NCBI GenBank assembly: GCA_016858145.1
Contig: JAEHOE010000161.1
Coordinates: forward strand, 1-64,000
Direction of reading: 5' to 3'
From: Edaphochlamys debaryana
Lineage: Eukaryota > Chlorophyta > Chlorophyceae > Chlamydomonadales
Length of the DNA stretch: 64,000 nt
Each line of letters begins with the position of its first letter. Position 1 is the first letter of the stretch. The position numbers and the translations under genes are program-made. This document shows, piece after piece, positions 1-28,008 of this stretch. The notes under the pieces are model-generated. The model did not search any database. It was not told where the DNA came from and saw nothing but the letters and a program-made list of their open reading frames with translations.

Positions 1-447
1 CCTAAACCCTATACCCTAAACCTAACCAAACCCTAACCTAAACCCTAAACCCTAAAACCCTAACCCAAACCCTAAACCCTAAAACCCTAAACCCTAAACC
101 CTAAACCCTAAACCCTAAACCCTAAACCCTAAACCCTAAACCCTAACACCTAAACCCTAACAACCTAAACCCTAAACCCCTAAACCCCTAAACCCTAAAC
201 CCTAAACCCGTAAACCCTAAACCCTAAACCCTAACCCTAAACCCTAAAACCCTAAACCCTAAACCCTAAACCCTAAACCCTAAACCCTAAACCCTAAACC
301 CTAAACCCTAAACCCTAAACCCTAAACCCTAAACCCTAAACCCTAAACCCTAAACCCTAAACCCTAAACCCTAAACCCTAAAAACCCTAAACCCTAAACC
401 CTAAACCCTAAAACCCTAAACCCCTAAACCCTAAACCCTACCCTAAA
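1..447. repeat. terminal telomere, CCCTAAA repeats
   Basis: The first 447 bases are almost entirely CCCTAAA units, the C-rich strand of the TTTAGGG telomere, in the orientation expected at a left chromosome end. The outer ~250 bp contain degenerate units (CCTAACC, CCCCTAAA, CCCGTAAA, extra A); the inner part is more regular. The last units before the junction at 448 are again irregular (CCCTACCCTAAAA). This repeat is typical of plants and of Chlorella-like green algae. Confidence 0.97.
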
Positions 448-773
448 AGTGCAGGTCGTTGAGGTGCCCCTAGTCCTTGCCCCCCTAACGGTGCAGAGTG
501 GTCTAGCTGAACGAAGAGTGCGGTGTTGTGGCCAGGGCGTGACGGCAATGCGCCTCGGGTCCGGATTGGGTGCAAGCATTGGGACGTGCATGCGGCTCGG
601 GACCAGCACCGATCGGCAAGTCGGCCTCGCGCGACCAACGCTCCATACGCCGACCCATACGTTGCGCACCACTGCAAGCCAGACTGCCGGAGCGGCCGCA
701 TTTTGCTACTCGGCATACGGGCAAGCTTGGCTAGCGTTGTTTGGCGACCCTTAGGCGTAAATAGCTAGACAAA
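448..773. other. intergenic stretch next to healed telomere
   Basis: 326 bp between the telomere junction and the start of the first gene. It is the mirror of 16598-16923. It contains only part of what is a divergent promoter in the right arm, because the copy ends at 448. No gene seen. Confidence 0.6.
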
Positions 774-1360
774 ATGATCGGATTGCGCAAGAAGGCCTCA
801 AAGGCCGTGGGTGCCGCTCTGGCGCTCATCCCGGGTGGCAATGCCGGCCTCGCCGTCAAGGTGGCGCTGGGCGTTGCCTTCGCTTTCTGGTGGACCAGTG
901 GGCCAGGAGCAGAGGAAGAGAGGTGAGGCGGATTGTGTGATGGCCGTAAGAGAGGGATACGCGGTGGGGTCTTGGAGGGGGGAGCGTGGTGGCAGGTCTC
1001 GTTGAGGCGCCGGCCGCTTCAACCACGAAACTAGCCTGACCCAGATCTCCGGCTGTGCTTCTTCGCTCAGTGTCCACAAAGGTTCATAAGGGTGCGAGGA
1101 GCACAGGATTGTCAGCCGTCATAGCAGGGGTGCGCCGGCCCGCTGACCTGCACGGCACCCCACCCGTTCCCGTTCCCCCGCTGGCCCCCAGCGACCACAA
1201 GGCCCAGCAGGAGCCCGACCGGCGCTCGCAGTACACCCGGCACTACGCCTTCAAGGGCCGGGGGCGCAAGGAGTTTCTGCGATCCGACATGAAGGACGAC
1301 GTGAACGAGCTGGTCTTCACCCGCTCGGCGGCCGGCGTCAAGCAGGCGCTGCAGCTCTGA
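774..1360 (+). CDS. small single-membrane-span protein, unknown function (left copy)
   Basis: Two exons, 774-922 and 1192-1360, give 105 residues. I infer the donor AG|GTGAGG and an acceptor after a C-rich tract ending CCCCCAG; the phases match (2+1). Residues about 11-40 are hydrophobic with Gly and Ala and end in a Phe-Trp-Trp patch, which looks like one membrane span after a basic N-terminus (MIGLRKKASK). The C-terminal half is charged, with many Arg, Lys and Asp. This resembles accessory subunits of organelle membrane complexes only in general style; I do not recognise the family. The ATG at 774 follows AAA. This copy keeps just 326 bp of upstream sequence before the telomere. An alternative acceptor at about 1128 would lengthen the middle. 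Confidence 0.6.
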
Positions 1361-4192
1361 GCGGGGCCGACCGGGAGATGGGAGGCGAGGGGGCGGCGGG
1401 AGTAAAGGAGGCAGCGGCCGGTGCGACATAGCGCCTGGCCCTCCCCTCCTGGTCCCCCTCGCCTACCCTGGCCGACTGCCCCACGCCTTGGCGGTCCGGG
1501 ATCCCGGGCCAGGCGTGCGGCGGGATGCAGTCAGAGTATCTGTGGTTGATTGTAGGGCTAGTTGCAAGTTTGGGCTGGCTTGGTCGGCCTTGCTGGGGTA
1601 GCGCGGCGATGGTCGGGCTCGGACGTCGGAACCCCAGCTTCTTGTTGGGTGGGCCGCGCTGGTGGTCCTGTGGTGTGGGCCAGGAGTTGTGCTCGTGAGT
1701 AGTGCTGGGAGCGCGCCTCCGGTTCGCGGGCACGCGTCCCATGTGCGGGCGCGTTGTGTGCGTGCGCCCAGGTGGCCCGGACGAGGTGAACGGGAGCAGC
1801 GCTATGGGGAGCCGTGTGGCTGCGGGCGCAGGGCGCTGGCCCTGTGGCCATGCTCCAGCTCCCGCGGGGAAGGCGGGGAGGCGCTCCCGGTTGGCTGTCA
1901 GGGTGCTGATGAGTGCCCCGCAGAGTATGGGTGCAGTCTTGGACTTTGCGGCTGCCGTGGCTTGGACTGGGGCCGCTGCGATGCTGGGTACCGTCCTGCG
2001 GGCGCCGGGAAGGGTGAATGCCAGACCACTGCGGCCCTTCATGGTTGGGGGCTGGGTGCGTGGACCGGATGACGGATGACCGGGCGACGATTGTAGGGGT
2101 TGAGGTGGAGTGGGGCGGGGCTGGAAGGCGTTAGGAAGCTTGATGCGCATTTGCTGTGGGGCGGGTCTTGTGCGGAGCGAGATGGTCATGCGCAGCGCAG
2201 GGCAGGGGCTGGTCAGCAGTGATCACTGGTTCGCCCCATATCTAAGGACGCTGTGAAAAAAATGTACACGCACAAAATTCGGGGGTTTGCGGGCCTCTCG
2301 CGCCCTGCCGATGCGTGCGTGCGGTAGCTGAATATGCCCGCTATAGCTGATCTCATTTTCTCGTGCAGGCTCGTGCCCTGGAGGAAGCGCGCCTTGGTGC
2401 CCTCGCGACCTGGGGGGCGTGCTCCGCCGCGCGGGCCTCTCGCAGCCTGCCACCAGCTTCAGTATTTACATGGATGGCTGATCTACACCATGCAGCGACT
2501 GCGAGGTCGCGAGGGCAGCGCAAGAGCAAGAGCGACTGATGTTCGGCCTCGGTTTGGGAGCACCGTTTCTCACGACTAGTGTCTTCATCGCGCTACGCTG
2601 TTCAAGATGTGCTGTGCGGTTACGCGAGCGGCCTAGCTCTGAAAAGTGTGTGTTACATGGTGGGAATCTTCGCGCCCCAGCGCTTCCGGGCTGCGCCTGT
2701 GGTCGCTTCAATAACAATGAGCATCAGAACTGCGATCGCGACAGGTCGCAGTGGATAGGCAGAAGCGTGTCGGCCCCGCAGAGCACTTGACGACAGCACC
2801 CCCCGCAGTGCCCCCCCCCCTGCCCCCCCCCTGTTTGTGGGGTGGGGGGTGCCATAACAGCTGTGCTGTCCGCAGATAGGGAGCGCAGGGGCTGAGTTGC
2901 AGGGGGCTGCTAGTATGCTCTGTCCAGCTCACCCTGGCGCCGTGTTGTTATCATCACTGGGTGCCGTTTCCTGTTGGCCATTACAGCAGACTCCTCAGCG
3001 CTAGAGCGCTGACTTTCTCTCTGACACAGCACGGGGTTCAGGAGCCGACGCTGACTCCAGCCGTCCAGGGCAATAGACGGAGTTTATGGAGACCTGGGAA
3101 TGCCACCTGCACGCCACGGCGGGGCCAGTGACGCGTGCGCAAGTCAGTCGGCAACGACAGTCAAAGGGGTCCGCCGACGCCCGATGCCACGGCCACGGCT
3201 TCAACATACGAATGATCCCCGAAGGTAACACAGGCCCCATCGACTGCGTGGGTGGGCCTGCTCAGCTCGTTGCTTGATCCGTTGCATCACCGGCTGGGGG
3301 GGCGTTGCTTGATCCGTCGCATTACTGGCTGGGGGGCCAGACTCGGCTAGCTCCATGCCGCAGCAATCCCAATGGCTACTTGTCATCAAGGTGGCGGCGT
3401 GATAGCGTGCAGGCAGCGAGGCCGTCTTTCTATTTGCCGCGGCTTGGAGCCGTATGCGCGCATCACACTCAGGCGTTAGGGCGTCGCTACGGTGATGTTC
3501 TCATGTACGATTTGCCCTGACCCGAGTGCGCCGCAGAACTCCCGTTCGCCCCTACAGCCCTACTCAGTCGTTTGGAGCAAGATCTAAGAAAGCTAGGGAG
3601 CGGCAACGGCCCCCGCTGCGGCTGACGGGCAGCCGATGCCGAGGCAGACCAGGGCAGCTGAGGGCGGGGTGGGCGGGGTGGGCCGGGGGAAGACGGGCAA
3701 CGGGCGTGCAGAAACCGCGACGACGGGGGCGCAGACCTCTCTCTGTGTAACATTGTTATGACCCTAGGTCAACAGTGGGCCCAGTGGCTGGCCGTCGCAA
3801 GTTGTGAGTGGCCCGCCGGCTTACTTCGGGGCGCTCACCGATTTGCAGACGTTACATTCGGGATGAGCCCCTTGACTCTCGCTGCCTACATAAGCCGCTA
3901 CCTCTACGCTGTTACACCACTGCCACTCCTGCGAAGTCGTGCACCTCAACGCCACAGAACACAACCGTGAACCCCAGTCTCGGCATTTGCCCCGCCGTGT
4001 AGCTCAGCACCCCGCGGGATTCTTGAGACACATCCAGGTCAGCACTTTGCAGTTCAATTAAGGCCGCAGAAGACCTCGCCCGCCGCAGAAGCGGGGCTCG
4101 GAGCTCGCAATGCACCGGAATAATTCTCGGCACCGAGCTTCCAGGAGCGCGGGTTAACTGATCACAGCTGTGTGGCACTGTACGCAGGAGCC
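1361..4192. other. gene-poor subtelomeric stretch (left copy)
   Basis: 2.8 kb with no exon series or protein family that I recognise. It holds a pair of 35 bp direct repeats near 3268-3337 and a C-run/G-run block near 2806-2850. A long proline-rich minus-strand reading frame (1338-2189) overlaps the 3' exon of the preceding gene antisense and looks like an effect of base composition. Confidence 0.5.
3268..3337. repeat. two 35 bp direct repeats (left copy)
   Basis: Copies at 3268-3302 and 3303-3337 both read CGTTGCTTGATCCGT, then a slightly diverged middle, then GGCTGGGGGG. They abut with no spacer. Confidence 0.85.
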
Positions 4193-5357
4193 ATGGCCGT
4201 CGCTCTTCGCCAGTCCTGCGCCGTCGCCTCGGTCCCGACCTCCCGGCGTGTGGCTGTGGTGGTCCGTGCCTCCGCTGGCCAGATCAACCCCTCCATCCGC
4301 AAGGTGCGCTGGGGGCCTGCAGTGGCAAGGGGGTCGGAAGGCAGGCGCTGAGCGGTGAACGGCCTGCGATATAGTTGTGTCCTGTGGGGTTTGGCAAGCA
4401 CGCCTGCCAGGCGGGTTTTGAGGCTCCAGTGTGGTTGCGCCGCTCGGCTCGGGGTCCAGTCCTCGGCGTGTACAATGAAGGACCCCCCTGGGGTCACAGC
4501 GCTGAACACTGCACCCAAGTGGCCCACCTCACGGGCTTGCACCCTGCAAGCCAAAACGCAAGTCCATGTCGTGACTCGCACTGGCTGCGGTCAGGTCCCC
4601 TGACCGCACGCAGCCGCGGGGCCGGCTCAGCCCTGCCCCGGGCTGGCTTGCGACATTCGGCCTTCTCCCAGCTGTGACCCCCACGCTCCCCCTCCCCCCA
4701 TGGTCCCCTCAGTCCGAGGAGAAGGTGGCTGACATCATCAAGGTGGCCAACGTGCCCAAGCCCAAGGCCGTGTTCTGCAGGTGCTGGAGGGCGGACGCCT
4801 CCAAGGTGGGTGGGCGGAGAGGGGGGCGGTGAGGGGTGCTTGGGGGCAAGCCAGGGTCTGTGACGAGCAGCCACAAGAGGAGCTCACTTGGGAGTTTCAG
4901 CTTCAAGCGTGTTGCACCTGCCGTTAGGGACTGGAGTGGGAGGGCTGCTGTCACTAGGGCCTGCGTCACGTTGCTCCGCCCCCACGCTCCTCCCTCTTCA
5001 ACCCCCGCCTGTGCAGTTCCCTTACTGCGACGGCTCCCACGTAAAGTGAGTTTTGGAGGCGGGGGGGCTCATGGGGGCTCGGTCGGCTTGGGAAGCAGCA
5101 GGCAGGTTTGCCACGATGTGGGTAGGGGCGCGTTCGAGGACCAGCTCTGCGGGTAGGCATGTTGGCGGCCCTGCTCACCTGTGTGCGGGAAGCTAGGGCC
5201 TAGCGCATGATCTGGTTGTGACCTCCCGCTGGTGCTCAGCGGCTGTAGTGCGCATCCTCACCTGGCCCCTTGCCCCTTCTGCCGCCCGCCTGCACACAGG
5301 CACAACAAGGAGACTGGCGACAATGTGGGCCCCCTTGTCATCGACTCCACCCCTTGA
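4193..5357 (+). CDS. NEET: NEET-type CDGSH iron-sulfur protein (left copy)
   Basis: Four exons (4193-4303, 4713-4805, 5017-5045, 5300-5357) give 96 residues. The CDGSH domain is complete: Cys59 and Cys61 (FCRCW), then Cys72 and His76 (YCDGSH), the 3Cys-1His ligand set for a [2Fe-2S] cluster. The block INPSIRK, the end HVKHNKETGDNVGPLV and the total length are as in plant NEET (Arabidopsis At5g51720). Family members act in iron/ROS handling in chloroplasts and mitochondria. The first ~30 residues (Ser, Val, Arg rich, ending VVVRAS) look like an organelle transit peptide. All splice phases match. A TGTAA motif lies 250 bp after the stop. An identical mirrored copy lies at 12014-13178, so the gene is present twice. 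Confidence 0.93.
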
Positions 5358-5909
5358 AGGGCCGAGGGCGGCAATCCTAAGGCAGGCAGACTAAAATGGT
5401 GCCAGAAGTGTCCTCCTTGGCAGTTGATGTGATCCCTCAGGTGTCATATTTGTGTTCTGCGTGTGAGGTTGGCAAACACACTTTGGTGACATTGCTGTGA
5501 GTGCACGGGTCATTGCCCTACACCCAGCCATGATGGAACGGGTCTCATGTTGAGCCACATTGCGAACCTGCATTTGAGAACTTCAACACAATCACCGGAC
5601 AGGATCTGTAACAAGAGTGATGATACTGTTCTAGTCTGCCGCCTTACATGATGCCCTGATGTCGGTGAGCCCGCTTGGTGACGCAACCCGGCTCAGCTAC
5701 AGGCATGCGCTATCCGCCAAAAGGGTTGTCCGAGGCAGATACCGCCCCCCACCCCTATGAGCTTTGTGCCGAGTGCTATTAGCAGCTGTGCTGTCGACAA
5801 TCTAGCATGCCTTCGTGGACAGCGATCCACGTGGGGGCACTTGGGGCCTGAGCACCCAACACCAGGTTCACGTCGTCACTCAGTAGCGTCAGCGCGATAG
5901 CCTCCCCAG
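5358..5909. other. NEET 3' flank, no gene seen (left copy)
   Basis: About 550 bp of more AT-balanced sequence between the NEET stop and the first recognisable exon of the glycosyltransferase relic. The N-terminal half expected of a GT77 gene is not here. Confidence 0.45.
5607..5611 (+). terminator. possible polyadenylation signal of NEET gene
   Basis: TGTAA, the usual poly(A) signal of chlorophyte green algae, lies 250 bp past the NEET stop codon. The mirrored motif is at 11760-11764. This is a short motif, so the support is weak. Confidence 0.35.
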
Positions 5910-7906
5910 GTACTCTGAACGCACGGTCAAGTCGTGGACGTGTGGCTTGACACCTTCAACAAAGGTGGGGGGGAGGCGGAAGGGAGGGGGGGCAACGGGG
6001 CGAGGCGGAAGGGAAGGGGCGGAGGAGGGAGAGGCGGAAGGGAAGGGGCGGAGTGTGTCCAGGATGTGGGCCATCAGAGGGGAGTGCCAGGGCCAGCTCG
6101 TGCCCGCTTTACCTAGGGGGACGGGAAGCCCCCCAACCCCCCTCCCTCCGTCTCCCCCCTCCCCCCCCCAGACCCCGAGTACTGAGGTTCGAAAGCTTTC
6201 ATCGACCTCGCCCGCACCGGCTGGGACCCCGTGGCCAAGGTGGGGGGTTGGGGTGTGGGGTGGGCGGGGTGACCCTTACTGCCTCCGTCTCGAGCCAGGT
6301 GCTGGGCTGGGAGAAAGACAGCGTCACGCTCCCCCCCCTCTCCCACCCCCCAGGTGCACCCCGACAACAAGCGGGTGTTCATGGGCTACAACGACACCCT
6401 GGCGGTGGGGGTGCTGCCCATGGCATCGTTCTCGGGATGGGTGGGCGGGGCGGGGCGGGGTGGGGTGGGGTGGAATGGAGGGGGGTTAACGGGTACGGGT
6501 CCTGGGGTTAGGGCGCGGGGCTGACGGCAGGGCATGCGTGTGGCAGTGCAGCTGGCAGGGACTGGAGGGCAGCAGGAGAGAGCTTGCAGGCACCCCGACC
6601 CGTGACCATGAGGGCATGCGTGTGGCAGTGCAGCAGAGGCGGGTAGCGAGTTCAGGACAACACCGCGTCCGTCTCAGGGTGGGGCCTTCCGCCTGTTTCC
6701 TGAGCCGAGAGCCTCCTGACAACTGTGGGCGCCCTCCCCCCCCTGCCCTCCCCTGCCCTCCCCTGCAGCGGCCACACCTTCTACGTCCAGCGCCTGTACG
6801 AGGTGGGGGGGGGGGGGACTGTGCGGCCCGGCAGGCTGTGATCTGGGAGTTGGGCCTAGCAAACATGGGAAGGCGGTCCACCCAGGCGAAGGTGTGCGCT
6901 GCTCAGCTCTGCGGCAGGCAGGCCTGCCCAGACCCCGAGTCCTAGCCCTTGTGCCCTGGCCGATCCCCATGGCCGCTCCTGCCACCCTCCCACCCTCGTA
7001 CACCCAACACCCACGTCATCGCCCCCCCCAGGTCCAGCGCGTGCCCCTGTACGCGGTGCACTGCACCTTCCAGTACGGAGCCAACCGGGGCAAGCGCAAC
7101 CGGCTGAGGGAGGCGCAGCTCTTGGCCGACCCGCCCGAGTACTGGACGGGTGCGTGCGTGCCCCCTCGGAGGGCGGGGAGCGCCCCTCAGCACCCCACCC
7201 CACCGCATCCCACCCAACCCTCCGGCCCCCCTGCGCCCGCGTTCACACTCACGCACCCCCCGACCGGCCCCCTGCCCCCCCCAGGCGACTCTTACATCAG
7301 CATGCGTGGATGGAGCTGCACCGGGTGCCCTCCCAACACATGAGAGGAGCACTCGGCGCGGAACAACAGCCAGATGAAGGTGTGTGGGGGGGGAGGTAGG
7401 CGGGGGCGGTAGGGGGGGAGGTGGAGGCTCCCGAGTGCATGGTGGCACTGTGCTTCGGAGGGCTGCGTGAGGCGTGGGACTGGGGGGGTATGACCTTCGC
7501 CTCCTCTTTCCCCCCCCCCTCCCCCCCCCCCCAGCGCTACCACTTCCGCGGCCTGGACATGCAGCTGGAGGCGGTGAGGGGGCGGCCAGGGGGGGCGGGA
7601 GGGGTGGGGTCGGGAGGCACTGAGGGAGGTGGCTTGACCCGTCAGGAGCCTTTCTGGGGCACCTGAGCCTACCGCGAACCTGGCGCTTGGGCTTTTGATC
7701 GGTCGACGGTTGTTGGAGCCTAGGCAGCGGCGCCTTAGCTGACTGCAGGGCCGCCAGCGCAGGCGTCATGGAGGACCTGACGCGGCCCTTTGGTGTGCCC
7801 CCTTGATACATGCCTCTTGCTCCCCCTCAGTTCTGGCCCACGCTGCGCGTGGCAGCGGTGACCAACCGCTCCGTCATTATCCCCAAGCTCGCGTGCTGCT
7901 GCGACA
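5910..7906 (+). pseudogene. GT77-family (XEG113-like) glycosyltransferase relic (left copy)
   Basis: Eight exon-like blocks follow the C-terminal part of plant/algal GT77 nucleotide-sugar transferases, the family of extensin arabinosyltransferases such as XEG113. They include VVDVWLDTFNK (5931-5963), GWDPVAK, GVLPMASF, GHTFYVQRLYE, PLYAVHCTFQYG with GKRNRLREAQ and DPPEYW (about 7030-7146), MKRYHFRGLDMQLEA and FWPTLRVAAVTNRSVIIPKL (7831-7890). Most splice phases match. The frame holds three TGA stops: near 5916, in the second exon after DPEY, and at 7341-7343 before EEHSARNN. The last exon ends at a good GT donor (7907), but no further exon exists before the minisatellite. The 5' half of a normal gene is missing too. 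I infer a dead gene cut off by the chromosome end. Confidence 0.8.
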
Positions 7907-8226
7907 AGTGAGGGGGCGGGGCCAAGGAGGGGAGAGAAGGGCAGGGTGGAGGGCAAGATTTGGAGGGTGCTGAGCAACAGGGGTTGAGGGTATTGCCGGC
8001 AGCTCGAGTTGGCAGGAACGTGAGTGATACAACTTGAGCATTGTGGGAACGACAGCTGGAAAAGAGACCAGAACTGCCTGCTTGAGGCCCAAGTCCAAAC
8101 CGCCCCCCCTCCTTTCCGCCTCAGGTACTGGACTGAGCTTGATAAGTGCAGGGTGCCAGGTACTTGGAAGGGGTGACATATCATACACATCAATGAGGGG
8201 GGAATACGAGTAATGATGATATAGGA
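7907..8226. other. subtelomeric spacer (left copy)
   Basis: 320 bp between the last glycosyltransferase exon and the minisatellite. No gene seen. Confidence 0.5.
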
Positions 8227-8594
8227 GAGAGGGGGCGATACGTAACGACAGGGAGCGATACGTAACGAGAGGGGGGTGATACGTAACGAGAGGGGGGTGA
8301 TACGTAACGAGAGGGGGGTGAGATGTAACGAGAGGGGGGCGATACGTACCACGAGGGGGGCGATACGTGACGACAGGGGGCGATACGTGATGACAGGAGG
8401 GTGATACGTAACTAGAGGGGGGTGATACGTAACGAGGGGGGGGGGAGATATGTAACGACAGGGGGCGATACGTAACGAGAGGGGGGTGATACGTAACGAG
8501 AGGGGACGAGAGGGGGCTATACGTAACGAGAGTGGGAGATACGTAACGAGAGGGGGCGTTACGTAACGAGGGGGGGGGGCGGGGGCGATATGTA
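8227..8594. repeat. TACGTA minisatellite (left copy)
   Basis: About 16-17 tandem units of roughly 19-21 bp with consensus GATACGTAACGAGAGGGGG. Each unit carries the palindrome TACGTA and a run of 4-9 G. Units vary by point changes (TACGTG, TATGTA, ATGTAA) and G-run length. The array lies directly against the internal telomere tract. Confidence 0.93.
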
Positions 8595-8600
8595 GGGAAA

Positions 8601-8684
8601 GGGTTAGGGTTAGGGTTTTAGGGTTTAGGGTTTAGGGTTTAGGGTTTAGGGTTTAGGGGGTTAGGGGTTTAGGGTTTAGGGTTT
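8601..8684. repeat. internal telomere tract, TTTAGGG orientation
   Basis: About 84 bp of G-strand telomere repeat run from 8601 to the palindrome centre. It begins with two TTAGGG variants, then mostly regular TTTAGGG units, with two expanded-G units near 8655-8668. It meets its exact mirror image at the centre. Confidence 0.95.
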
Positions 8685-8768
8685 AAACCCTAAACCCTAA
8701 ACCCCTAACCCCCTAAACCCTAAACCCTAAACCCTAAACCCTAAACCCTAAAACCCTAACCCTAACCC
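8685..8768. repeat. internal telomere tract, CCCTAAA orientation
   Basis: This is the mirror of 8601-8684, including every variant unit, joined head to head. The centre reads GGGTTTAAACCC with no spacer. In this orientation the tract is what would cap the right-arm chromosome if the left arm were absent. It is much shorter than the terminal 447 bp tract. Confidence 0.95.
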
Positions 8769-8774
8769 TTTCCC

Positions 8775-9143
8775 TACATATCGCCCCCCCCCCCCCCCCC
8801 TCGTTACGTAACGCCCCCTCTCGTTACGTATCTCCCACTCTCGTTACGTATAGCCCCCTCTCGTCCCCTCTCGTTACGTATCACCCCCCTCTCGTTACGT
8901 ATCGCCCCCTGTCGTTACATATCTCCCCCCCCCCTCGTTACGTATCACCCCCCTCTCGTTACGTATCACCCTCCTGTCATCACGTATCGCCCCCTGTCGT
9001 CACGTATCGCCCCCCTCGTGGTACGTATCGCCCCCCTCTCGTTACATCTCACCCCCCTCTCGTTACGTATCACCCCCCTCTCGTTACGTATCACCCCCCT
9101 CTCGTTACGTATCGCTCCCTGTCGTTACGTATCGCCCCCTCTC
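8775..9143. repeat. TACGTA minisatellite (right copy)
   Basis: Mirror image of the array at 8227-8594, with the same unit order and variants. The only difference noticed is in the innermost C-run next to the telomere, where a G in the left copy is C here and the run is one base longer. Confidence 0.93.
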
Positions 9144-9463
9144 TCCTATATCATCATTACTCGTATTCCCCCCTCATTGATGTGTATGATATGTCACCCC
9201 TTCCAAGTACCTGGCACCCTGCACTTATCAAGCTCAGTCCAGTACCTGAGGCGGAAAGGAGGGGGGGCGGTTTGGACTTGGGCCTCAAGCAGGCAGTTCT
9301 GGTCTCTTTTCCAGCTGTCGTTCCCACAATGCTCAAGTTGTATCACTCACGTTCCTGCCAACTCGAGCTGCCGGCAATACCCTCAACCCCTGTTGCTCAG
9401 CACCCTCCAAATCTTGCCCTCCACCCTGCCCTTCTCTCCCCTCCTTGGCCCCGCCCCCTCACT
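9144..9463. other. subtelomeric spacer (right copy)
   Basis: Mirror of 7907-8226. No gene seen. Confidence 0.5.
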
Positions 9464-11461
9464 TGTCGCAGCAGCACGCGAGCTTGGGGATAATGACGGA
9501 GCGGTTGGTCACCGCTGCCACGCGCAGCGTGGGCCAGAACTGAGGGGGAGCAAGAGGCATGTATCAAGGGGGCACACCAAAGGGCCGCGTCAGGTCCTCC
9601 ATGACGCCTGCGCTGGCGGCCCTGCAGTCAGCTAAGGCGCCGCTGCCTAGGCTCCAACAACCGTCGACCGATCAAAAGCCCAAGCGCCAGGTTCGCGGTA
9701 GGCTCAGGTGCCCCAGAAAGGCTCCTGACGGGTCAAGCCACCTCCCTCAGTGCCTCCCGACCCCACCCCTCCCGCCCCCCCTGGCCGCCCCCTCACCGCC
9801 TCCAGCTGCATGTCCAGGCCGCGGAAGTGGTAGCGCTGGGGGGGGGGGGGGGGGGGGGGGGAAAGAGGAGGCGAAGGTCATACCCCCCCAGTCCCACGCC
9901 TCACGCAGCCCTCCGAAGCACAGTGCCACCATGCACTCGGGAGCCTCCACCTCCCCCCCTACCGCCCCCGCCTACCTCCCCCCCCACACACCTTCATCTG
10001 GCTGTTGTTCCGCGCCGAGTGCTCCTCTCATGTGTTGGGAGGGCACCCGGTGCAGCTCCATCCACGCATGCTGATGTAAGAGTCGCCTGGGGGGGGCAGG
10101 GGGCCGGTCGGGGGGTGCGTGAGTGTGAACGCGGGCGCAGGGGGGCCGGAGGGTTGGGTGGGATGCGGTGGGGTGGGGTGCTGAGGGGCGCTCCCCGCCC
10201 TCCGAGGGGGCACGCACGCACCCGTCCAGTACTCGGGCGGGTCGGCCAAGAGCTGCGCCTCCCTCAGCCGGTTGCGCTTGCCCCGGTTGGCTCCGTACTG
10301 GAAGGTGCAGTGCACCGCGTACAGGGGCACGCGCTGGACCTGGGGGGGGCGATGACGTGGGTGTTGGGTGTACGAGGGTGGGAGGGTGGCAGGAGCGGCC
10401 ATGGGGATCGGCCAGGGCACAAGGGCTAGGACTCGGGGTCTGGGCAGGCCTGCCTGCCGCAGAGCTGAGCAGCGCACACCTTCGCCTGGGTGGACCGCCT
10501 TCCCATGTTTGCTAGGCCCAACTCCCAGATCACAGCCTGCCGGGCCGCACAGTCCCCCCCCCCCCCACCTCGTACAGGCGCTGGACGTAGAAGGTGTGGC
10601 CGCTGCAGGGGAGGGCAGGGGAGGGCAGGGGGGGGAGGGCGCCCACAGTTGTCAGGAGGCTCTCGGCTCAGGAAACAGGCGGAAGGCCCCACCCTGAGAC
10701 GGACGCGGTGTTGTCCTGAACTCGCTACCCGCCTCTGCTGCACTGCCACACGCATGCCCTCATGGTCACGGGTCGGGGTGCCTGCAAGCTCTCTCCTGCT
10801 GCCCTCCAGTCCCTGCCAGCTGCACTGCCACACGCATGCCCTGCCGTCAGCCCCGCGCCCTAACCCCAGGACCCGTACCCGTTAACCCCCCTCCATTCCA
10901 CCCCACCCCACCCCGCCCCGCCCCGCCCACCCATCCCGAGAACGATGCCATGGGCAGCACCCCCACCGCCAGGGTGTCGTTGTAGCCCATGAACACCCGC
11001 TTGTTGTCGGGGTGCACCTGGGGGGTGGGAGAGGGGGGGGAGCGTGACGCTGTCTTTCTCCCAGCCCAGCACCTGGCTCGAGACGGAGGCAGTAAGGGTC
11101 ACCCCGCCCACCCCACACCCCAACCCCCCACCTTGGCCACGGGGTCCCAGCCGGTGCGGGCGAGGTCGATGAAAGCTTTCGAACCTCAGTACTCGGGGTC
11201 TGGGGGGGGGAGGGGGGAGACGGAGGGAGGGGGGTTGGGGGGCTTCCCGTCCCCCTAGGTAAAGCGGGCACGAGCTGGCCCTGGCACTCCCCTCTGATGG
11301 CCCACATCCTGGACACACTCCGCCCCTTCCCTTCCGCCTCTCCCTCCTCCGCCCCTTCCCTTCCGCCTCGCCCCGTTGCCCCCCCTCCCTTCCGCCTCCC
11401 CCCCACCTTTGTTGAAGGTGTCAAGCCACACGTCCACGACTTGACCGTGCGTTCAGAGTAC
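9464..11461 (-). pseudogene. GT77-family glycosyltransferase relic (right copy)
   Basis: Mirror of the relic at 5910-7906, reading toward the palindrome centre. It carries the same conserved blocks (for example FWPTLRVAAVTNRS near the centre-proximal end and TFQYG with DPPEYW near 10224-10340) and the same TGA interruptions. In this orientation the gene runs off the original chromosome end: the 3' part would lie beyond the telomere at 8685. The loss therefore probably came from terminal truncation of an ancestral gene before the inverted duplication, since both arms share it. Confidence 0.8.
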
Positions 11462-12013
11462 CTGGGGAGGCTATCGCGCTGACGCTACTGAGTGACGACG
11501 TGAACCTGGTGTTGGGTGCTCAGGCCCCAAGTGCCCCCACGTGGATCGCTGTCCACGAAGGCATGCTAGATTGTCGACAGCACAGCTGCTAATAGCACTC
11601 GGCACAAAGCTCATAGGGGTGGGGGGCGGTATCTGCCTCGGACAACCCTTTTGGCGGATAGCGCATGCCTGTAGCTGAGCCGGGTTGCGTCACCAAGCGG
11701 GCTCACCGACATCAGGGCATCATGTAAGGCGGCAGACTAGAACAGTATCATCACTCTTGTTACAGATCCTGTCCGGTGATTGTGTTGAAGTTCTCAAATG
11801 CAGGTTCGCAATGTGGCTCAACATGAGACCCGTTCCATCATGGCTGGGTGTAGGGCAATGACCCGTGCACTCACAGCAATGTCACCAAAGTGTGTTTGCC
11901 AACCTCACACGCAGAACACAAATATGACACCTGAGGGATCACATCAACTGCCAAGGAGGACACTTCTGGCACCATTTTAGTCTGCCTGCCTTAGGATTGC
12001 CGCCCTCGGCCCT
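11462..12013. other. NEET 3' flank (right copy)
   Basis: Mirror of 5358-5909. It includes the mirrored TGTAA motif at 11760-11764 and no recognised gene. Confidence 0.45.
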
Positions 12014-13178
12014 TCAAGGGGTGGAGTCGATGACAAGGGGGCCCACATTGTCGCCAGTCTCCTTGTTGTGCCTGTGTGCAGGCGGGCGGCAGAAGGGGCA
12101 AGGGGCCAGGTGAGGATGCGCACTACAGCCGCTGAGCACCAGCGGGAGGTCACAACCAGATCATGCGCTAGGCCCTAGCTTCCCGCACACAGGTGAGCAG
12201 GGCCGCCAACATGCCTACCCGCAGAGCTGGTCCTCGAACGCGCCCCTACCCACATCGTGGCAAACCTGCCTGCTGCTTCCCAAGCCGACCGAGCCCCCAT
12301 GAGCCCCCCCGCCTCCAAAACTCACTTTACGTGGGAGCCGTCGCAGTAAGGGAACTGCACAGGCGGGGGTTGAAGAGGGAGGAGCGTGGGGGCGGAGCAA
12401 CGTGACGCAGGCCCTAGTGACAGCAGCCCTCCCACTCCAGTCCCTAACGGCAGGTGCAACACGCTTGAAGCTGAAACTCCCAAGTGAGCTCCTCTTGTGG
12501 CTGCTCGTCACAGACCCTGGCTTGCCCCCAAGCACCCCTCACCGCCCCCCTCTCCGCCCACCCACCTTGGAGGCGTCCGCCCTCCAGCACCTGCAGAACA
12601 CGGCCTTGGGCTTGGGCACGTTGGCCACCTTGATGATGTCAGCCACCTTCTCCTCGGACTGAGGGGACCATGGGGGGAGGGGGAGCGTGGGGGTCACAGC
12701 TGGGAGAAGGCCGAATGTCGCAAGCCAGCCCGGGGCAGGGCTGAGCCGGCCCCGCGGCTGCGTGCGGTCAGGGGACCTGACCGCAGCCAGTGCGAGTCAC
12801 GACATGGACTTGCGTTTTGGCTTGCAGGGTGCAAGCCCGTGAGGTGGGCCACTTGGGTGCAGTGTTCAGCGCTGTGACCCCAGGGGGGTCCTTCATTGTA
12901 CACGCCGAGGACTGGACCCCGAGCCGAGCGGCGCAACCACACTGGAGCCTCAAAACCCGCCTGGCAGGCGTGCTTGCCAAACCCCACAGGACACAACTAT
13001 ATCGCAGGCCGTTCACCGCTCAGCGCCTGCCTTCCGACCCCCTTGCCACTGCAGGCCCCCAGCGCACCTTGCGGATGGAGGGGTTGATCTGGCCAGCGGA
13101 GGCACGGACCACCACAGCCACACGCCGGGAGGTCGGGACCGAGGCGACGGCGCAGGACTGGCGAAGAGCGACGGCCAT
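12014..13178 (-). CDS. NEET: NEET-type CDGSH iron-sulfur protein (right copy)
   Basis: Mirror of the gene at 4193-5357, with exons at 13068-13178, 12566-12658, 12326-12354 and 12014-12071. It encodes the same 96-residue protein with a predicted transit peptide and the four cluster ligands Cys59, Cys61, Cys72 and His76. This copy sits in the arm joined to unique chromosome sequence and is probably the ancestral locus. Reading frame and splice sites are intact, so both copies could be expressed. Confidence 0.93.
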
Positions 13179-16010
13179 GGCTCCTGCGTACAGTGCCACA
13201 CAGCTGTGATCAGTTAACCCGCGCTCCTGGAAGCTCGGTGCCGAGAATTATTCCGGTGCATTGCGAGCTCCGAGCCCCGCTTCTGCGGCGGGCGAGGTCT
13301 TCTGCGGCCTTAATTGAACTGCAAAGTGCTGACCTGGATGTGTCTCAAGAATCCCGCGGGGTGCTGAGCTACACGGCGGGGCAAATGCCGAGACTGGGGT
13401 TCACGGTTGTGTTCTGTGGCGTTGAGGTGCACGACTTCGCAGGAGTGGCAGTGGTGTAACAGCGTAGAGGTAGCGGCTTATGTAGGCAGCGAGAGTCAAG
13501 GGGCTCATCCCGAATGTAACGTCTGCAAATCGGTGAGCGCCCCGAAGTAAGCCGGCGGGCCACTCACAACTTGCGACGGCCAGCCACTGGGCCCACTGTT
13601 GACCTAGGGTCATAACAATGTTACACAGAGAGAGGTCTGCGCCCCCGTCGTCGCGGTTTCTGCACGCCCGTTGCCCGTCTTCCCCCGGCCCACCCCGCCC
13701 ACCCCGCCCTCAGCTGCCCTGGTCTGCCTCGGCATCGGCTGCCCGTCAGCCGCAGCGGGGGCCGTTGCCGCTCCCTAGCTTTCTTAGATCTTGCTCCAAA
13801 CGACTGAGTAGGGCTGTAGGGGCGAACGGGAGTTCTGCGGCGCACTCGGGTCAGGGCAAATCGTACATGAGAACATCACCGTAGCGACGCCCTAACGCCT
13901 GAGTGTGATGCGCGCATACGGCTCCAAGCCGCGGCAAATAGAAAGACGGCCTCGCTGCCTGCACGCTATCACGCCGCCACCTTGATGACAAGTAGCCATT
14001 GGGATTGCTGCGGCATGGAGCTAGCCGAGTCTGGCCCCCCAGCCAGTAATGCGACGGATCAAGCAACGCCCCCCCAGCCGGTGATGCAACGGATCAAGCA
14101 ACGAGCTGAGCAGGCCCACCCACGCAGTCGATGGGGCCTGTGTTACCTTCGGGGATCATTCGTATGTTGAAGCCGTGGCCGTGGCATCGGGCGTCGGCGG
14201 ACCCCTTTGACTGTCGTTGCCGACTGACTTGCGCACGCGTCACTGGCCCCGCCGTGGCGTGCAGGTGGCATTCCCAGGTCTCCATAAACTCCGTCTATTG
14301 CCCTGGACGGCTGGAGTCAGCGTCGGCTCCTGAACCCCGTGCTGTGTCAGAGAGAAAGTCAGCGCTCTAGCGCTGAGGAGTCTGCTGTAATGGCCAACAG
14401 GAAACGGCACCCAGTGATGATAACAACACGGCGCCAGGGTGAGCTGGACAGAGCATACTAGCAGCCCCCTGCAACTCAGCCCCTGCGCTCCCTATCTGCG
14501 GACAGCACAGCTGTTATGGCACCCCCCACCCCACAAACAGGGGGGGGGCAGGGGGGGGGGCACTGCGGGGGGTGCTGTCGTCAAGTGCTCTGCGGGGCCG
14601 ACACGCTTCTGCCTATCCACTGCGACCTGTCGCGATCGCAGTTCTGATGCTCATTGTTATTGAAGCGACCACAGGCGCAGCCCGGAAGCGCTGGGGCGCG
14701 AAGATTCCCACCATGTAACACACACTTTTCAGAGCTAGGCCGCTCGCGTAACCGCACAGCACATCTTGAACAGCGTAGCGCGATGAAGACACTAGTCGTG
14801 AGAAACGGTGCTCCCAAACCGAGGCCGAACATCAGTCGCTCTTGCTCTTGCGCTGCCCTCGCGACCTCGCAGTCGCTGCATGGTGTAGATCAGCCATCCA
14901 TGTAAATACTGAAGCTGGTGGCAGGCTGCGAGAGGCCCGCGCGGCGGAGCACGCCCCCCAGGTCGCGAGGGCACCAAGGCGCGCTTCCTCCAGGGCACGA
15001 GCCTGCACGAGAAAATGAGATCAGCTATAGCGGGCATATTCAGCTACCGCACGCACGCATCGGCAGGGCGCGAGAGGCCCGCAAACCCCCGAATTTTGTG
15101 CGTGTACATTTTTTTCACAGCGTCCTTAGATATGGGGCGAACCAGTGATCACTGCTGACCAGCCCCTGCCCTGCGCTGCGCATGACCATCTCGCTCCGCA
15201 CAAGACCCGCCCCACAGCAAATGCGCATCAAGCTTCCTAACGCCTTCCAGCCCCGCCCCACTCCACCTCAACCCCTACAATCGTCGCCCGGTCATCCGTC
15301 ATCCGGTCCACGCACCCAGCCCCCAACCATGAAGGGCCGCAGTGGTCTGGCATTCACCCTTCCCGGCGCCCGCAGGACGGTACCCAGCATCGCAGCGGCC
15401 CCAGTCCAAGCCACGGCAGCCGCAAAGTCCAAGACTGCACCCATACTCTGCGGGGCACTCATCAGCACCCTGACAGCCAACCGGGAGCGCCTCCCCGCCT
15501 TCCCCGCGGGAGCTGGAGCATGGCCACAGGGCCAGCGCCCTGCGCCCGCAGCCACACGGCTCCCCATAGCGCTGCTCCCGTTCACCTCGTCCGGGCCACC
15601 TGGGCGCACGCACACAACGCGCCCGCACATGGGACGCGTGCCCGCGAACCGGAGGCGCGCTCCCAGCACTACTCACGAGCACAACTCCTGGCCCACACCA
15701 CAGGACCACCAGCGCGGCCCACCCAACAAGAAGCTGGGGTTCCGACGTCCGAGCCCGACCATCGCCGCGCTACCCCAGCAAGGCCGACCAAGCCAGCCCA
15801 AACTTGCAACTAGCCCTACAATCAACCACAGATACTCTGACTGCATCCCGCCGCACGCCTGGCCCGGGATCCCGGACCGCCAAGGCGTGGGGCAGTCGGC
15901 CAGGGTAGGCGAGGGGGACCAGGAGGGGAGGGCCAGGCGCTATGTCGCACCGGCCGCTGCCTCCTTTACTCCCGCCGCCCCCTCGCCTCCCATCTCCCGG
16001 TCGGCCCCGC
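13179..16010. other. gene-poor subtelomeric stretch (right copy)
   Basis: Mirror of 1361-4192, with no recognised gene. A 283-codon plus-strand frame (15182-16033) is proline- and arginine-rich with no family resemblance and overlaps an exon on the other strand, so I do not call it. Confidence 0.5.
14034..14103. repeat. two 35 bp direct repeats (right copy)
   Basis: Mirror of the repeat pair at 3268-3337. Confidence 0.85.
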
Positions 16011-16597
16011 TCAGAGCTGCAGCGCCTGCTTGACGCCGGCCGCCGAGCGGGTGAAGACCAGCTCGTTCACGTCGTCCTTCATGTCGGATCGCAGAAACTC
16101 CTTGCGCCCCCGGCCCTTGAAGGCGTAGTGCCGGGTGTACTGCGAGCGCCGGTCGGGCTCCTGCTGGGCCTTGTGGTCGCTGGGGGCCAGCGGGGGAACG
16201 GGAACGGGTGGGGTGCCGTGCAGGTCAGCGGGCCGGCGCACCCCTGCTATGACGGCTGACAATCCTGTGCTCCTCGCACCCTTATGAACCTTTGTGGACA
16301 CTGAGCGAAGAAGCACAGCCGGAGATCTGGGTCAGGCTAGTTTCGTGGTTGAAGCGGCCGGCGCCTCAACGAGACCTGCCACCACGCTCCCCCCTCCAAG
16401 ACCCCACCGCGTATCCCTCTCTTACGGCCATCACACAATCCGCCTCACCTCTCTTCCTCTGCTCCTGGCCCACTGGTCCACCAGAAAGCGAAGGCAACGC
16501 CCAGCGCCACCTTGACGGCGAGGCCGGCATTGCCACCCGGGATGAGCGCCAGAGCGGCACCCACGGCCTTTGAGGCCTTCTTGCGCAATCCGATCAT
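16011..16597 (-). CDS. small single-membrane-span protein, unknown function (right copy)
   Basis: Mirror of the gene at 774-1360 (exons 16449-16597 and 16011-16179). It predicts the same 105-residue protein: basic N-terminus, one Gly/Ala-rich hydrophobic span ending in Phe-Trp-Trp, then a charged tail. Unlike the left copy it keeps its full upstream region, which it shares divergently with CYP97A starting at 17049. Confidence 0.6.
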
Positions 16598-17048
16598 TTT
16601 GTCTAGCTATTTACGCCTAAGGGTCGCCAAACAACGCTAGCCAAGCTTGCCCGTATGCCGAGTAGCAAAATGCGGCCGCTCCGGCAGTCTGGCTTGCAGT
16701 GGTGCGCAACGTATGGGTCGGCGTATGGAGCGTTGGTCGCGCGAGGCCGACTTGCCGATCGGTGCTGGTCCCGAGCCGCATGCACGTCCCAATGCTTGCA
16801 CCCAATCCGGACCCGAGGCGCATTGCCGTCACGCCCTGGCCACAACACCGCACTCTTCGTTCAGCTAGACCACTCTGCACCGTTAGGGGGGCAAGGACTA
16901 GGGGCACCTCAACGACCTGCACTCTCCGCTCGATACCAGCCAAAGGAATTCGTCGGCGGTAACTTTGTGTGCTGTGAGCCAATTGCCCCCAGCCGGCGCA
17001 CGTGAGCCTTAGTTGACGACGGTCTGATAGTTACCTGGTACAGGCGCA
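16598..17048. promoter_or_regulatory. divergent promoter region split by duplication breakpoint
   Basis: 451 bp separate the start codons of the small membrane protein gene (-, 16597) and CYP97A (+, 17049), so both promoters must lie here. Palindrome homology ends at 16923, inside this interval and 125 bp before the CYP97A start codon. The left copy of the membrane protein gene therefore has 326 bp of this region. No clear TATA box was seen. Confidence 0.6.
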
Positions 17049-20000
17049 ATGCAGCAGCAACGCAGCGTTCTGGGCGGCCATGGCCAGCCTCGTGTGGCGC
17101 CGCGCTGCCCGCTCCGCCACGCGGCTGTGCAACGTTGCAAGTCGGTCGTGCGTGCGGAGCCGCCCAAGCCGTCGGGGTCAACAGCTGACGAGGAAAAGGG
17201 GTTGTTGGGGATTCTGCCTCTGGCTGCAAAGGGTCAGAACCTCGACGCACGCATCCAGTCGGGCGAGTTTACTGACTCTGGCTCTACCAAGGAGCGCCTG
17301 ACACGGCCCCTTCGCCAGGCGCTGGCCAAGGAACCTGTCGTCGGTAAGACGGGTGATGGCGCGGGTTTTGCGGGACGAGTGGCTCGCGCCGCACGTCTTG
17401 AGCCCCACAACGCCATTCATGGCATAGCTCTGCCTTCTATAGACGAGCTGGCTATGTGTATGGCGCAACACCTGCTGCGTCGCGCGCACGGTACCGGCAC
17501 GCGCGTTCTGTACCTCCGTCGTGACACACGCCCCCGTGCGCCTTGCGGGCGCCGCACCTCAGTGTGCGCCCCTCACGGATTGTTGCGTGACGCACCATCG
17601 ACTCCTGCACAAGTGTTTAGCGCTCATTACTGTTGCCGCCTGCACGCGTGGTACCCCGCCCCTAGCTGGGCGCAGCCCGCCTCTGCTGCCTGACGCAGCC
17701 AGCCGCTGTATGCGTCTCGTCCCGAACCTGACCTTCCCCCGTCTCCTCTCCCCTTGCCCCCAATCCCTCGTTGCCCCCTCGCAGGCCGCTCCCTGGCCAT
17801 GACGCTGGCGGACCTCGGCCGGCAGTGGCGCGCGGCGGCGGCCAAGCGCATGCCCGAGGTGGGTCAACGGAGGGGGCCGGAGGGAAGGGCAGGGAGGGGA
17901 ACGGCGGGCGGGGAGGTGCCTCCAGCCTCCCATGGGTGGGCAGTGGTCTGCGACGGAGCCTTGGCGCGGGTATGCACGGCGCTTGTGACATGGCAGTGCC
18001 GCGCGTCCTCCGCCTGCTGCCGCTGGTGTGAGCGAGGCAGTCATGGTTTGTCGGTGTGGAGCGGACCAGCGGCTGTGGGGTCAGCCGCGGTACCAGGACT
18101 GGGAGCAGCAAACACCACCGACCTTAAAGCCTCAGCCAGGTCAGACAGCAGGCAGCCATGCGCCCCCGCCATGAGCCCCAAGCACCTACAAGACTTATAT
18201 GGCTTGGGGGCAGCAGGTTGTACCCAGTGCTGCTGGGCCACGGGCACAGCCAGTCACTGGCCGGTTCTGGCCGCAAGCACGGAGCCATGGGCTGCCGCGT
18301 CGCTCCCGGCAAGCCCCGCAGCCTAGACGCTACTCTGCTGCCTCTCTGCGTCTCCCACTGCGCCCGCACGCCTTGGCACGGTGTGCGGCGGCCCGCGTGG
18401 ATTCGTCATGAAGGCCGCACTTGCAAGCGCAGGCCCCCCTCTTCCCTTCAACCGGCTCCCCCTGCTGACTACTCCATCGACACCCTCCGGCCCTGCCCCC
18501 CCCCCTCCCCCCAGGCCCGCGGCGACATCCGCGAGATTGTGGGGCAGCCCGTGTTCGTGCCGCTCTACAAGCTCTTCCTGGTGTACGGCAAGATCTTCCG
18601 GCTGAGCTTCGGCCCCAAGTCGTTCGTCATCATCTCGGACCCCGCCTACGCCAAGCAGATCCTGCTCAGCAACGCGGACAAGTACTCCAAGGGGCTGCTC
18701 AGCGAGATCCTGGACTTCGTCATGGGCACGGTGGGGGGGGGGGGCGGGGAGGGCGGGAGCGGGGCAGGGACAGCGCGTCGGGGAAGGGTCCCTGCGGCCC
18801 GTGGGTGCCGGCCTTGGGAGCGAGCCAGAGAGACCGGGGAACAGCTGGAGTTGTGTTCGCAATCACCCTTGCGCGTTGTTGCTAGGCACTGGCGGCTACT
18901 GGGGGCTGGGGCGTAGGGAGCGTGTGTCTCACCTTGCCCGCCCCCGCCTCCGACCCCCCAGGGCCTCATCCCCGCTGACGGCGACATCTGGAAGGCCCGC
19001 CGCCGCGCGGTGGTCCCCGCGCTGCACCGCAAGTGAGCGCTGGGCAGCGGCGGGGGGCGGGGAAGACGGAGCCGACGGCAGGCGTGCCGCTGCTCGCACC
19101 TTGGGGTCTGCGCATAGATCGCTCCCAGCGCTGAGGGAGGCTCAGGCGTGCTGCAGGACGGCGGCTTGAGGCCCCTGCGCTTACGGTTCCCCCCGTCTCT
19201 CCCTCCCTTCCTCCCCCCTCCACCCCCCCCCCCAGGTACGTTGCCTCCATGGTGCGCATGTTCGGGGAATGCACGGTGCACGGCACCGGCACCCTGGACC
19301 GCTACGCGGCCAGCGGCGAGGGCCTGGACATGGAGAACTACTTTTCCCGCCTGGCGCTGGACATCATTGGCAAGGCCGTGTTCAACTACGACTTCGACTC
19401 GCTCACGCACGACGACCCGGTCATCAAGGTGGGGGGCACTGGGGGGGAGAGGTATGGAGGGGGAGGGCCCAGCGGCAGGGCGAGAGGGGATTTGCAGCTG
19501 GGCTCTGTGGACAGCGACGTGGGTGGGGCGGGGCGGGCGGGGGTCGCTCGCCCTTGGCCGGCCCTCGCTCCGACAGGTGCAGCGTACTTCCAAGCCCCCA
19601 CGCTCGAGCGAGCCCACACGCCCCTGCCACCCACCCCACCCTCCCCCCAGGCCGTGTACGTGCTGCTGCGCGAGGCCGAGCACCGCTCCACCGCCCCCAT
19701 CGCCTACTGGAACATCCCCGGCGTCGCGCTGCTGGTGCCCCGGCAGCGGCGCTGCCAGGAGGCGCTGGTGGTTGTGAACGACTGCCTGGACGGCCTCATC
19801 GACAAGTGCAAGCAGCTGGTGGGCAGGCAGGGGGGGGACAGGGTTGAGAGGGAGCCGACTTCAGCGTCGTCCTGCGAGTCCGTAAGCCCCTGACCTGCGG
19901 TTGACGCCAGTCCCCCGCCCCTCCTTCCCTCGCCCTCCCTTGCCCCCTCACCCCCCTCCGCCCCCCAGGTCCAGGAGGAGGACATTCAGTTCAGCGAGGA

Positions 20001-27970: not shown

Positions 27971-28008
<38 letters not shown>

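What the first reader, a model, noticed from the sequence alone, without database searches (positions are those of the whole stretch)
448..16923. 16.5 kb near-perfect palindrome with a telomere-telomere junction at its centre
The two 8.24 kb arms are reverse complements, with the differences found limited to homopolymer lengths and one base inside such a run. The centre is TTTAGGG repeat meeting CCCTAAA repeat. The whole structure is capped by a third telomere tract at 1-447. This is what a breakage-fusion-bridge event would leave: a chromosome end fuses to its sister, the dicentric breaks, and the break is healed by telomere addition. A simple fold-back assembly error would explain the mirror but not the new telomere placed at a different point from the mirrored sequence.
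Basis: partly seen in the sequence, partly recalled or inferred. Interest (0 to 1): 0.92.

Follow-up and report, generated by a model that had tools for sequence, protein, structure and literature searches.

The report
Healed mirror-image chromosome end in alga
One chromosome end of a green alga appears to have fused to its own mirror copy, broken again 8 kb further in and been re-capped with a new telomere, which if real is a base-level natural record of a chromosome breakage-and-repair cycle; an assembly fold-back is not excluded without the raw reads.

Summary
The palindrome is real in the sequence: arms 448-8684 and 8685-16923 (8,237 and 8,239 bp) differ at three sites and meet without a spacer at GGGTTT|AAACCC. 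The window starts contig C161 of an assembly whose statistics match the published Edaphochlamys debaryana genome (PacBio, Canu). The centre looks like a former chromosome end: a gene end, a TACGTAAC minisatellite, then telomere repeat; the same gene-minisatellite order occurs on C196 and C321. At 447/448 outward-facing telomere repeat joins the mirrored sequence. "Terminal inverted duplication healed by telomere addition" explains all junctions at once. A plain fold-back artefact does not explain the cap, its orientation, or central tracts of about 84 bp per side when six other assembled ends have about 365-845 bp. Another end (C56) independently looks like telomere healing on AGGG. Raw reads could not be examined. 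A new, unusually complete example of a known kind.

The parts
1..447 (+). Outer (new) telomere tract, CCCTAAA orientation, contig start
   Evidence: 77% of bases in canonical CCCTAAA units
447..448 (.). Junction X': telomere joined to mirrored sequence (CCCTAAA|AGTGCAGGTCG); native counterpart reads GCGGAG|AGTGCAGGTCG
448..8684 (+). Left arm of the palindrome (8,237 bp)
774..923 (+). Presumed first exon (end approximate) of an uncharacterised gene, ATG 326 bp from the new telomere; mirrored with ATG at 16597 (-)
   Evidence: joined pieces gave no Pfam match
7831..7911 (+). 3' end of a nucleotide-diphospho-sugar-transferase-like gene (FWPTLRVAAVTNRSVIIPKLACCCDK stop), pointing to the centre; mirrored at 9459-9539 (-)
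   Evidence: PF03407 only weak, E 0.021, 15.2 bits against cut-off 22
8225..8576 (+). TACGTAAC minisatellite, about 21-bp unit
8601..8684 (+). Left central telomere tract, 84 bp, TTTAGGG
8684..8685 (.). Centre of the palindrome, GGGTTT|AAACCC, no spacer
8685..8769 (+). Right central telomere tract, CCCTAAA; presumed former chromosome end
8794..9143 (+). Mirrored minisatellite
8685..16923 (+). Right arm (8,239 bp), presumed original copy, continuous with the chromosome
12017..13178 (-). CDGSH iron-sulfur (NEET-like) gene in the right arm, four exon pieces joined by eye; mirrored about 4193-5354 (+)
   Evidence: PF09360, E 1.7e-9, 38.2 bits against cut-off 29.5; positions
16923..16924 (.). Junction X: end of mirrored sequence, start of sequence present once
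17049..21571 (+). Cytochrome P450 gene, first ATG about 125 bp beyond X (extent approximate; CYP97-like is recalled, not tested)
   Evidence: PF00067, E 1.4e-11 for 20969-21571; 18158-18913 only E 0.0012, below cut-off; 19249-19890 no match; ATG and haem-motif positions

Best explanation
A real terminal inverted duplication. The original end of this chromosome was the right arm, ending in telomere at 8685. Its telomere became very short (about 84 bp), and the end was joined to a copy of itself, through a fold-back hairpin or the sister chromatid, at GGGTTT|AAACCC, giving after replication a two-centromere mirror chromosome. That broke at the point mirrored at 16923, and telomerase capped the broken end with TTTAGGG repeat (1-447). 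Shown by the assembled sequence: the mirror, the centre, the cap and its orientation, the subtelomere-like surroundings of the centre. Inferred: short telomere as the cause, the dicentric, the bridge break, telomerase as the healer.
For: Arms identical but for 3 sites, zero spacer. The cap starts exactly where mirroring stops and faces outward; in the searches made, the sequence at X was found only in the two arms of C161. Central tracts of 84-85 bp per side against about 365-845 bp at six other telomere-ended contigs (limits set by eye). The centre side carries a gene end plus minisatellite that occur in the same order on C196 and C321; C196 continues outward into satellite shared with the telomere ends of C128 and C56. 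Probable telomere healing elsewhere: C56's telomere cuts into a block 99.8% identical to one in C128, at an AGGG seed. The junction is the TTTAGGG form of the human inward fusion TTAGGGTTAACCCTAA, where self-complementary TA is the microhomology (PMC10762111 passages).
Against: No raw reads or depth. The exact symmetry of the centre is also what a read fold-back gives, and sister fusions in human cells were mostly asymmetric (PMC4864465 section 8). The cap is at the contig end, where coverage is usually low (general knowledge). The seed at X is at most a single T. The word 'palindrom' does not occur in the main text of the genome paper. The minisatellite also occurs at an internal place on C157, so it does not by itself prove a chromosome end.
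Confidence: 0.62

Rival explanations
1. Assembly or library artefact: a fold-back (missed-adapter or hairpin) read of an ordinary chromosome end was kept by the assembler, and a telomere sequence was joined to its far end by a second error.
For: The matching published assembly is PacBio with Canu 1.7.1 (PMC8226300 section 19). Palindromic long reads are a known artefact after whole-genome amplification (abstract of PMC6218980 in a search listing); missed-adapter reads are recalled. Zero spacer and near-identical arms are typical.
Against: Needs two unrelated errors. The cap faces outward; ligating a natural end to a sheared fragment would give the opposite orientation (inference). A mirrored ordinary end should carry two full telomeres at its centre, not about 84 bp each.
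Confidence: 0.22
2. Fold-back synthesis without a bridge: the eroded end looped back and primed copying of its own chromosome for 8.2 kb; the new end then detached and was capped by telomerase. No two-centromere chromosome is needed.
For: Explains a perfectly symmetric centre better than joining of two sister ends. Hairpin fold-back at telomeres is proposed in PMC10762111 (passages) and synthesis-driven palindromes after telomere loss in PMC4981268 (abstract and passages).
Against: G-strand repeat pairs with itself only through TA (inference), so priming is weak; the end product does not distinguish it from a broken dicentric.
Confidence: 0.13
3. Two coexisting molecules: the normal chromosome end plus a small acentric fragment capped at both ends, merged by the assembler.
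For: Would give both junctions at X from single-copy sources.
Against: TTTAGGG and CCCTAAA ends do not overlap, so merging still needs a fold-back read; an acentric fragment should be lost; no other contig held a near-identical copy of the two arm stretches searched, 448-2447 (apart from its dispersed repeat) and 7700-8600.
Confidence: 0.03

Closest known systems
Breakage-fusion-bridge cycle ended by telomere healing (McClintock; human terminal inverted duplications with neo-telomeres, PMC2292745, passages seen)
   Same: Terminal inverted duplication; new telomere on non-telomeric DNA at the break
   Different: The human cases were read by karyotype and probes; here old telomere, mirror and new cap are all seen in one sequence, and the duplicated piece is only 8.2 kb
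Sister-chromatid telomere fusions in human cells (PMC4864465, section 8 and passages)
   Same: Head-to-head fusion of one chromosome end, microhomology
   Different: Those are mostly asymmetric; this centre is symmetric to the base
Inward telomere fusions TTAGGGTTAACCCTAA in cancer (PMC10762111, passages)
   Same: Equivalent TA-overlap junction; hairpin fold-back proposed
Palindromes in yeast without telomere maintenance (PMC4981268, abstract and passages)
   Same: End loss followed by a large palindrome
   Different: Yeast palindromes form at short inverted repeats after telomeres are lost; here the telomere is the centre and the far end is capped
Sister-chromatid fusion of an accessory chromosome in Zymoseptoria tritici (PMC3681731, passages)
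   Same: Natural event in a eukaryotic microbe, fusion in a subtelomeric region expected to start a bridge cycle
   Different: Attributed there to recombination between inverted repeats; no telomere-centred junction in the passages seen

Membership tests
Breakage-fusion-bridge product | Terminal inverted duplication with the old end at the centre | tested here: met
   (in the assembled sequence)
Breakage-fusion-bridge product | Break away from the fusion point, stabilised by a new cap | tested here: met
   447/448, (in the assembled sequence; not in reads)
Breakage-fusion-bridge product | Dicentric intermediate and anaphase bridge | not testable with these tools
   needs cytology or derived lines
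Breakage-fusion-bridge product | Doubled copy number of the arm in reads | not testable with these tools
   no reads held
Sister-chromatid telomere fusion (two separately processed ends) | Unequal loss on the two sides (typical in PMC4864465) | tested here: not met
   equal to the base; so not filed as this
De novo telomere addition (healing) | Telomere repeat joined directly to non-telomeric DNA, usually with a short seed | tested here: met
   direct join at X, seed one T at most; comparison case C56: AGGG
Long-read fold-back artefact | Arm ends at the read or adapter end, nothing new beyond it | tested here: not met
   447-bp outward telomere lies beyond the arm
Long-read fold-back artefact | Found on single chimeric reads only | not testable with these tools
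   no reads held

The most novel reading that the evidence does not exclude
A short, plant-type telomere closed on itself as a hairpin (strand to strand, or by the two-base TA overlap), so that replication produced a base-perfect palindrome, and the chromosome was rescued by telomere addition 8.2 kb inward: a complete, natural, single-cycle record of telomere hairpin closure and healing in an alga.
Probability: 0.3. Interest if true: 0.68.

Novelty: new member of a known kind. Interest (0 to 1): 0.52.

Why it matters
If real, the result of every step of a chromosome-end crisis and its repair is readable at single-base level in one natural genome (haploid, by recall), with the duplicated genes (a CDGSH iron-sulfur gene, a sugar-transferase-like gene and at least one more) and the break about 125 bp upstream of a P450 gene. 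It would make the question whether short telomeres fuse by sister joining or by hairpin closure testable in an alga with plant-type telomeres. If it is an artefact, a published reference genome carries about 8 kb of false duplicate sequence at this end.

Tried and rejected
Idea that the outer side (448) is the native subtelomere and the centre an insertion: rejected, since the block next to the centre is the one shared with C196 and C321, while the 2 kb next to 448 matched only the two arms and a dispersed repeat of about 220 bp (39 of 41 matches). Idea that the centre is one of the short head-to-head telomere insertions as at C9, C63 and C92: rejected, those loci hold no exact inverted 25-mers in about 1.5-kb flanks. 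The same 25-mer check on the ends of six other telomere contigs also gave none, but it is blind to mirrors of the C161 type, since C161's own first 1.9 kb (L077) gave none either; the genome-wide search of end pieces is the better control, and it covered five of six ends, with C128's piece lost in satellite. Dating: one substitution between two arms of 8,237 bp gives about 6x10^4 generations at an assumed 1e-9 per site and 6x10^5 at 1e-10; arm-to-arm conversion or a residual sequencing error makes this only a hint of youth. Rfam: no match in the window at gathering scores. Pfam: five of the eight open pieces tried gave no match. Literature: 9 searches; the rows listed (several lists capped at 10-20 of more) showed no paper titled or abstracted as a breakage-fusion-bridge product in this species; a Chlorella minichromosome paper is recalled, and one search did not bring it up.

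Full report
What is there. The window is bases 1-64000 of contig C161 (260,556 bp) in an assembly of 141.9 Mb and 502 contigs. Size, telomere repeat TTTAGGG and the length of contig number 56 (726,162 bp, against a published L50 of 56 and N50 of 0.73 Mb) match the Edaphochlamys debaryana assembly of Craig et al. 2021 (PMC8226300; sections 8 and 19 and passages seen), although that table gives 527 contigs and 142.14 Mb. That assembly was built from PacBio reads with Canu 1.7.1, Arrow and Pilon. The paper says that 15 contigs end in TTTAGGG repeat; my pattern met seven such contig ends: C56, C76, C128, C161, C212, C236 and C289.

The mirror. Arms 448-8684 and 8685-16923 are confirmed, without a spacer. 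No 25-mer of 16924-64000 has its reverse complement there (0 of 47,053), against 16,489 of 16,899 in 1-16923.

The centre looks like an old chromosome end. Going towards the centre, each arm has the 3' end of a sugar-transferase-like gene (FWPTLRVAAVTNRSVIIPKLAC), a TACGTAAC minisatellite and then 84-85 bp of telomere repeat. Contigs C196 and C321 carry the same gene end followed by the same kind of minisatellite. On C196 the block lies at 157.5-158.5 kb, and from 166.8 kb to the contig end at 175,451 follow sequences shared with the telomere ends of C56 and C128, so the block points to the end there. On C321 it points to the contig start. C157 has the minisatellite at an internal place, and weak matches on C91 and C135 cover other parts of the query, so the element is not confined to ends.

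The outer cap. The tract 1-447 reads CCCTAAA towards the arm, so it faces outward as a chromosome end should. It joins the arm exactly where mirroring stops: CACT|TTTAGGG in the healed copy, CACT|CTCCGC in the native one. Of 41 matches to the 2 kb next to this junction, two are the arms and 39 hit only a dispersed repeat of about 220 bp. A 3-kb query across X found the X region itself only in C161.

Tract lengths. The six other telomere-ended contigs have assembled tracts of roughly 365 to 845 bp (limits set by eye); the cap has 447 bp; the central tracts have 84-85 bp per side. A fold-back copy of an ordinary end would show two full-length tracts. Very short tracts at a fusion point are expected of an eroded end (established knowledge).

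Probable telomere healing elsewhere in this assembly. The sequence beside the C56 telomere is 99.8% identical over 543 bp to a block in C128, which runs on outward for about 850 bp before its own telomere. In C56 the telomere begins inside that block, sharing CCCT with it (AGGG read outward), a four-base telomere-like seed. So capping of truncated ends seems not to be peculiar to C161.

How the fusion may have happened. GGGTTT|AAACCC is what two ends in GGGTTTA-3' give when they overlap by TA (own derivation). The human counterpart TTAGGGTTAACCCTAA is listed first among inward fusions in ALT cancers (14% of pure ones, tied with a second at 14%), and a hairpin fold-back is among the mechanisms proposed (PMC10762111, passages). 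In human cells sister-chromatid fusions show marked asymmetry (PMC4864465, section 8). The exact symmetry here therefore argues for hairpin closure over joining of two separately processed sisters, or else for an artefact. I cannot separate these without reads.

Why I favour a real event. One history explains all three junctions; the artefact needs a fold-back of an atypically short end plus an outward-facing telomere joined by chance at the mirror's limit. Why I stay cautious: the cap is at a contig end; no reads or depth could be examined; symmetric centres are characteristic of palindromic reads (PMC6218980 on amplified DNA, abstract in a search listing only; missed-adapter reads recalled); and longer stretches of other contig ends could not be fetched. 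The 25-mer check of other ends found nothing but cannot see a mirror of this type, as C161's own start shows.

Gene content. Each arm carries a CDGSH iron-sulfur gene (PF09360, E 1.7e-9, exon pieces joined by eye), a sugar-transferase-like gene (PF03407, E 0.021, below its cut-off) and an uncharacterised gene whose ATG lies 326 bp from the new telomere (no Pfam match). The break lies about 125 bp upstream of the first ATG of a P450 gene (PF00067: E 1.4e-11 for 20969-21571, E 0.0012 and below cut-off for 18158-18913). That it is CYP97-like is recalled only.

Verdict. Observation confirmed with one small correction. Interpretation partly supported: a healed terminal inverted duplication is the best reading; the exact route is open.

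Noticed in passing
L084:1100-1700 (G000:C276:45243-45843): A TTTAGGG tract of about 100 bp separates satellite arrays in opposite orientation (about 77-79% alike, up to 87% over a short piece): looks like another, non-palindromic end-to-end fusion with one telomere retained.
   Followed up: partly
L069 and L073 (C56 and C128 ends): C56's telomere sits inside a block that runs on for about 850 bp in C128: probable independent telomere healing at an AGGG seed.
   Followed up: yes
L051, L052-L063, L064 (C9:1629173, C63:670980-676771, C92:193397): Short head-to-head telomere-repeat insertions inside non-telomeric DNA, apparently with short flanking duplications at C92 and C9, and present four times in a satellite region at C63.
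   Followed up: partly
L002 (C27:670250-673277): A short interstitial TTTAGGG tract lies just inside the right arm's edge of a 405-bp inverted repeat (99%), between its arms; a second 188-bp inverted repeat lies beside it.
   Followed up: no
L001 (C21:8005-8038): A 34-bp interstitial CCCTAAA tract about 8 kb from a contig start that carries the subtelomeric satellite.
   Followed up: no
window 28001-36000: GC content rises to about 79%, against about 67-73% in the 4-kb steps from 16 kb on.
   Followed up: no
window 2229-2447 and its mirror: A repeat of about 220 bp in each arm has 39 further matches in the genome (82-100% identical, some partial), probably a piece of a mobile element.
   Followed up: no
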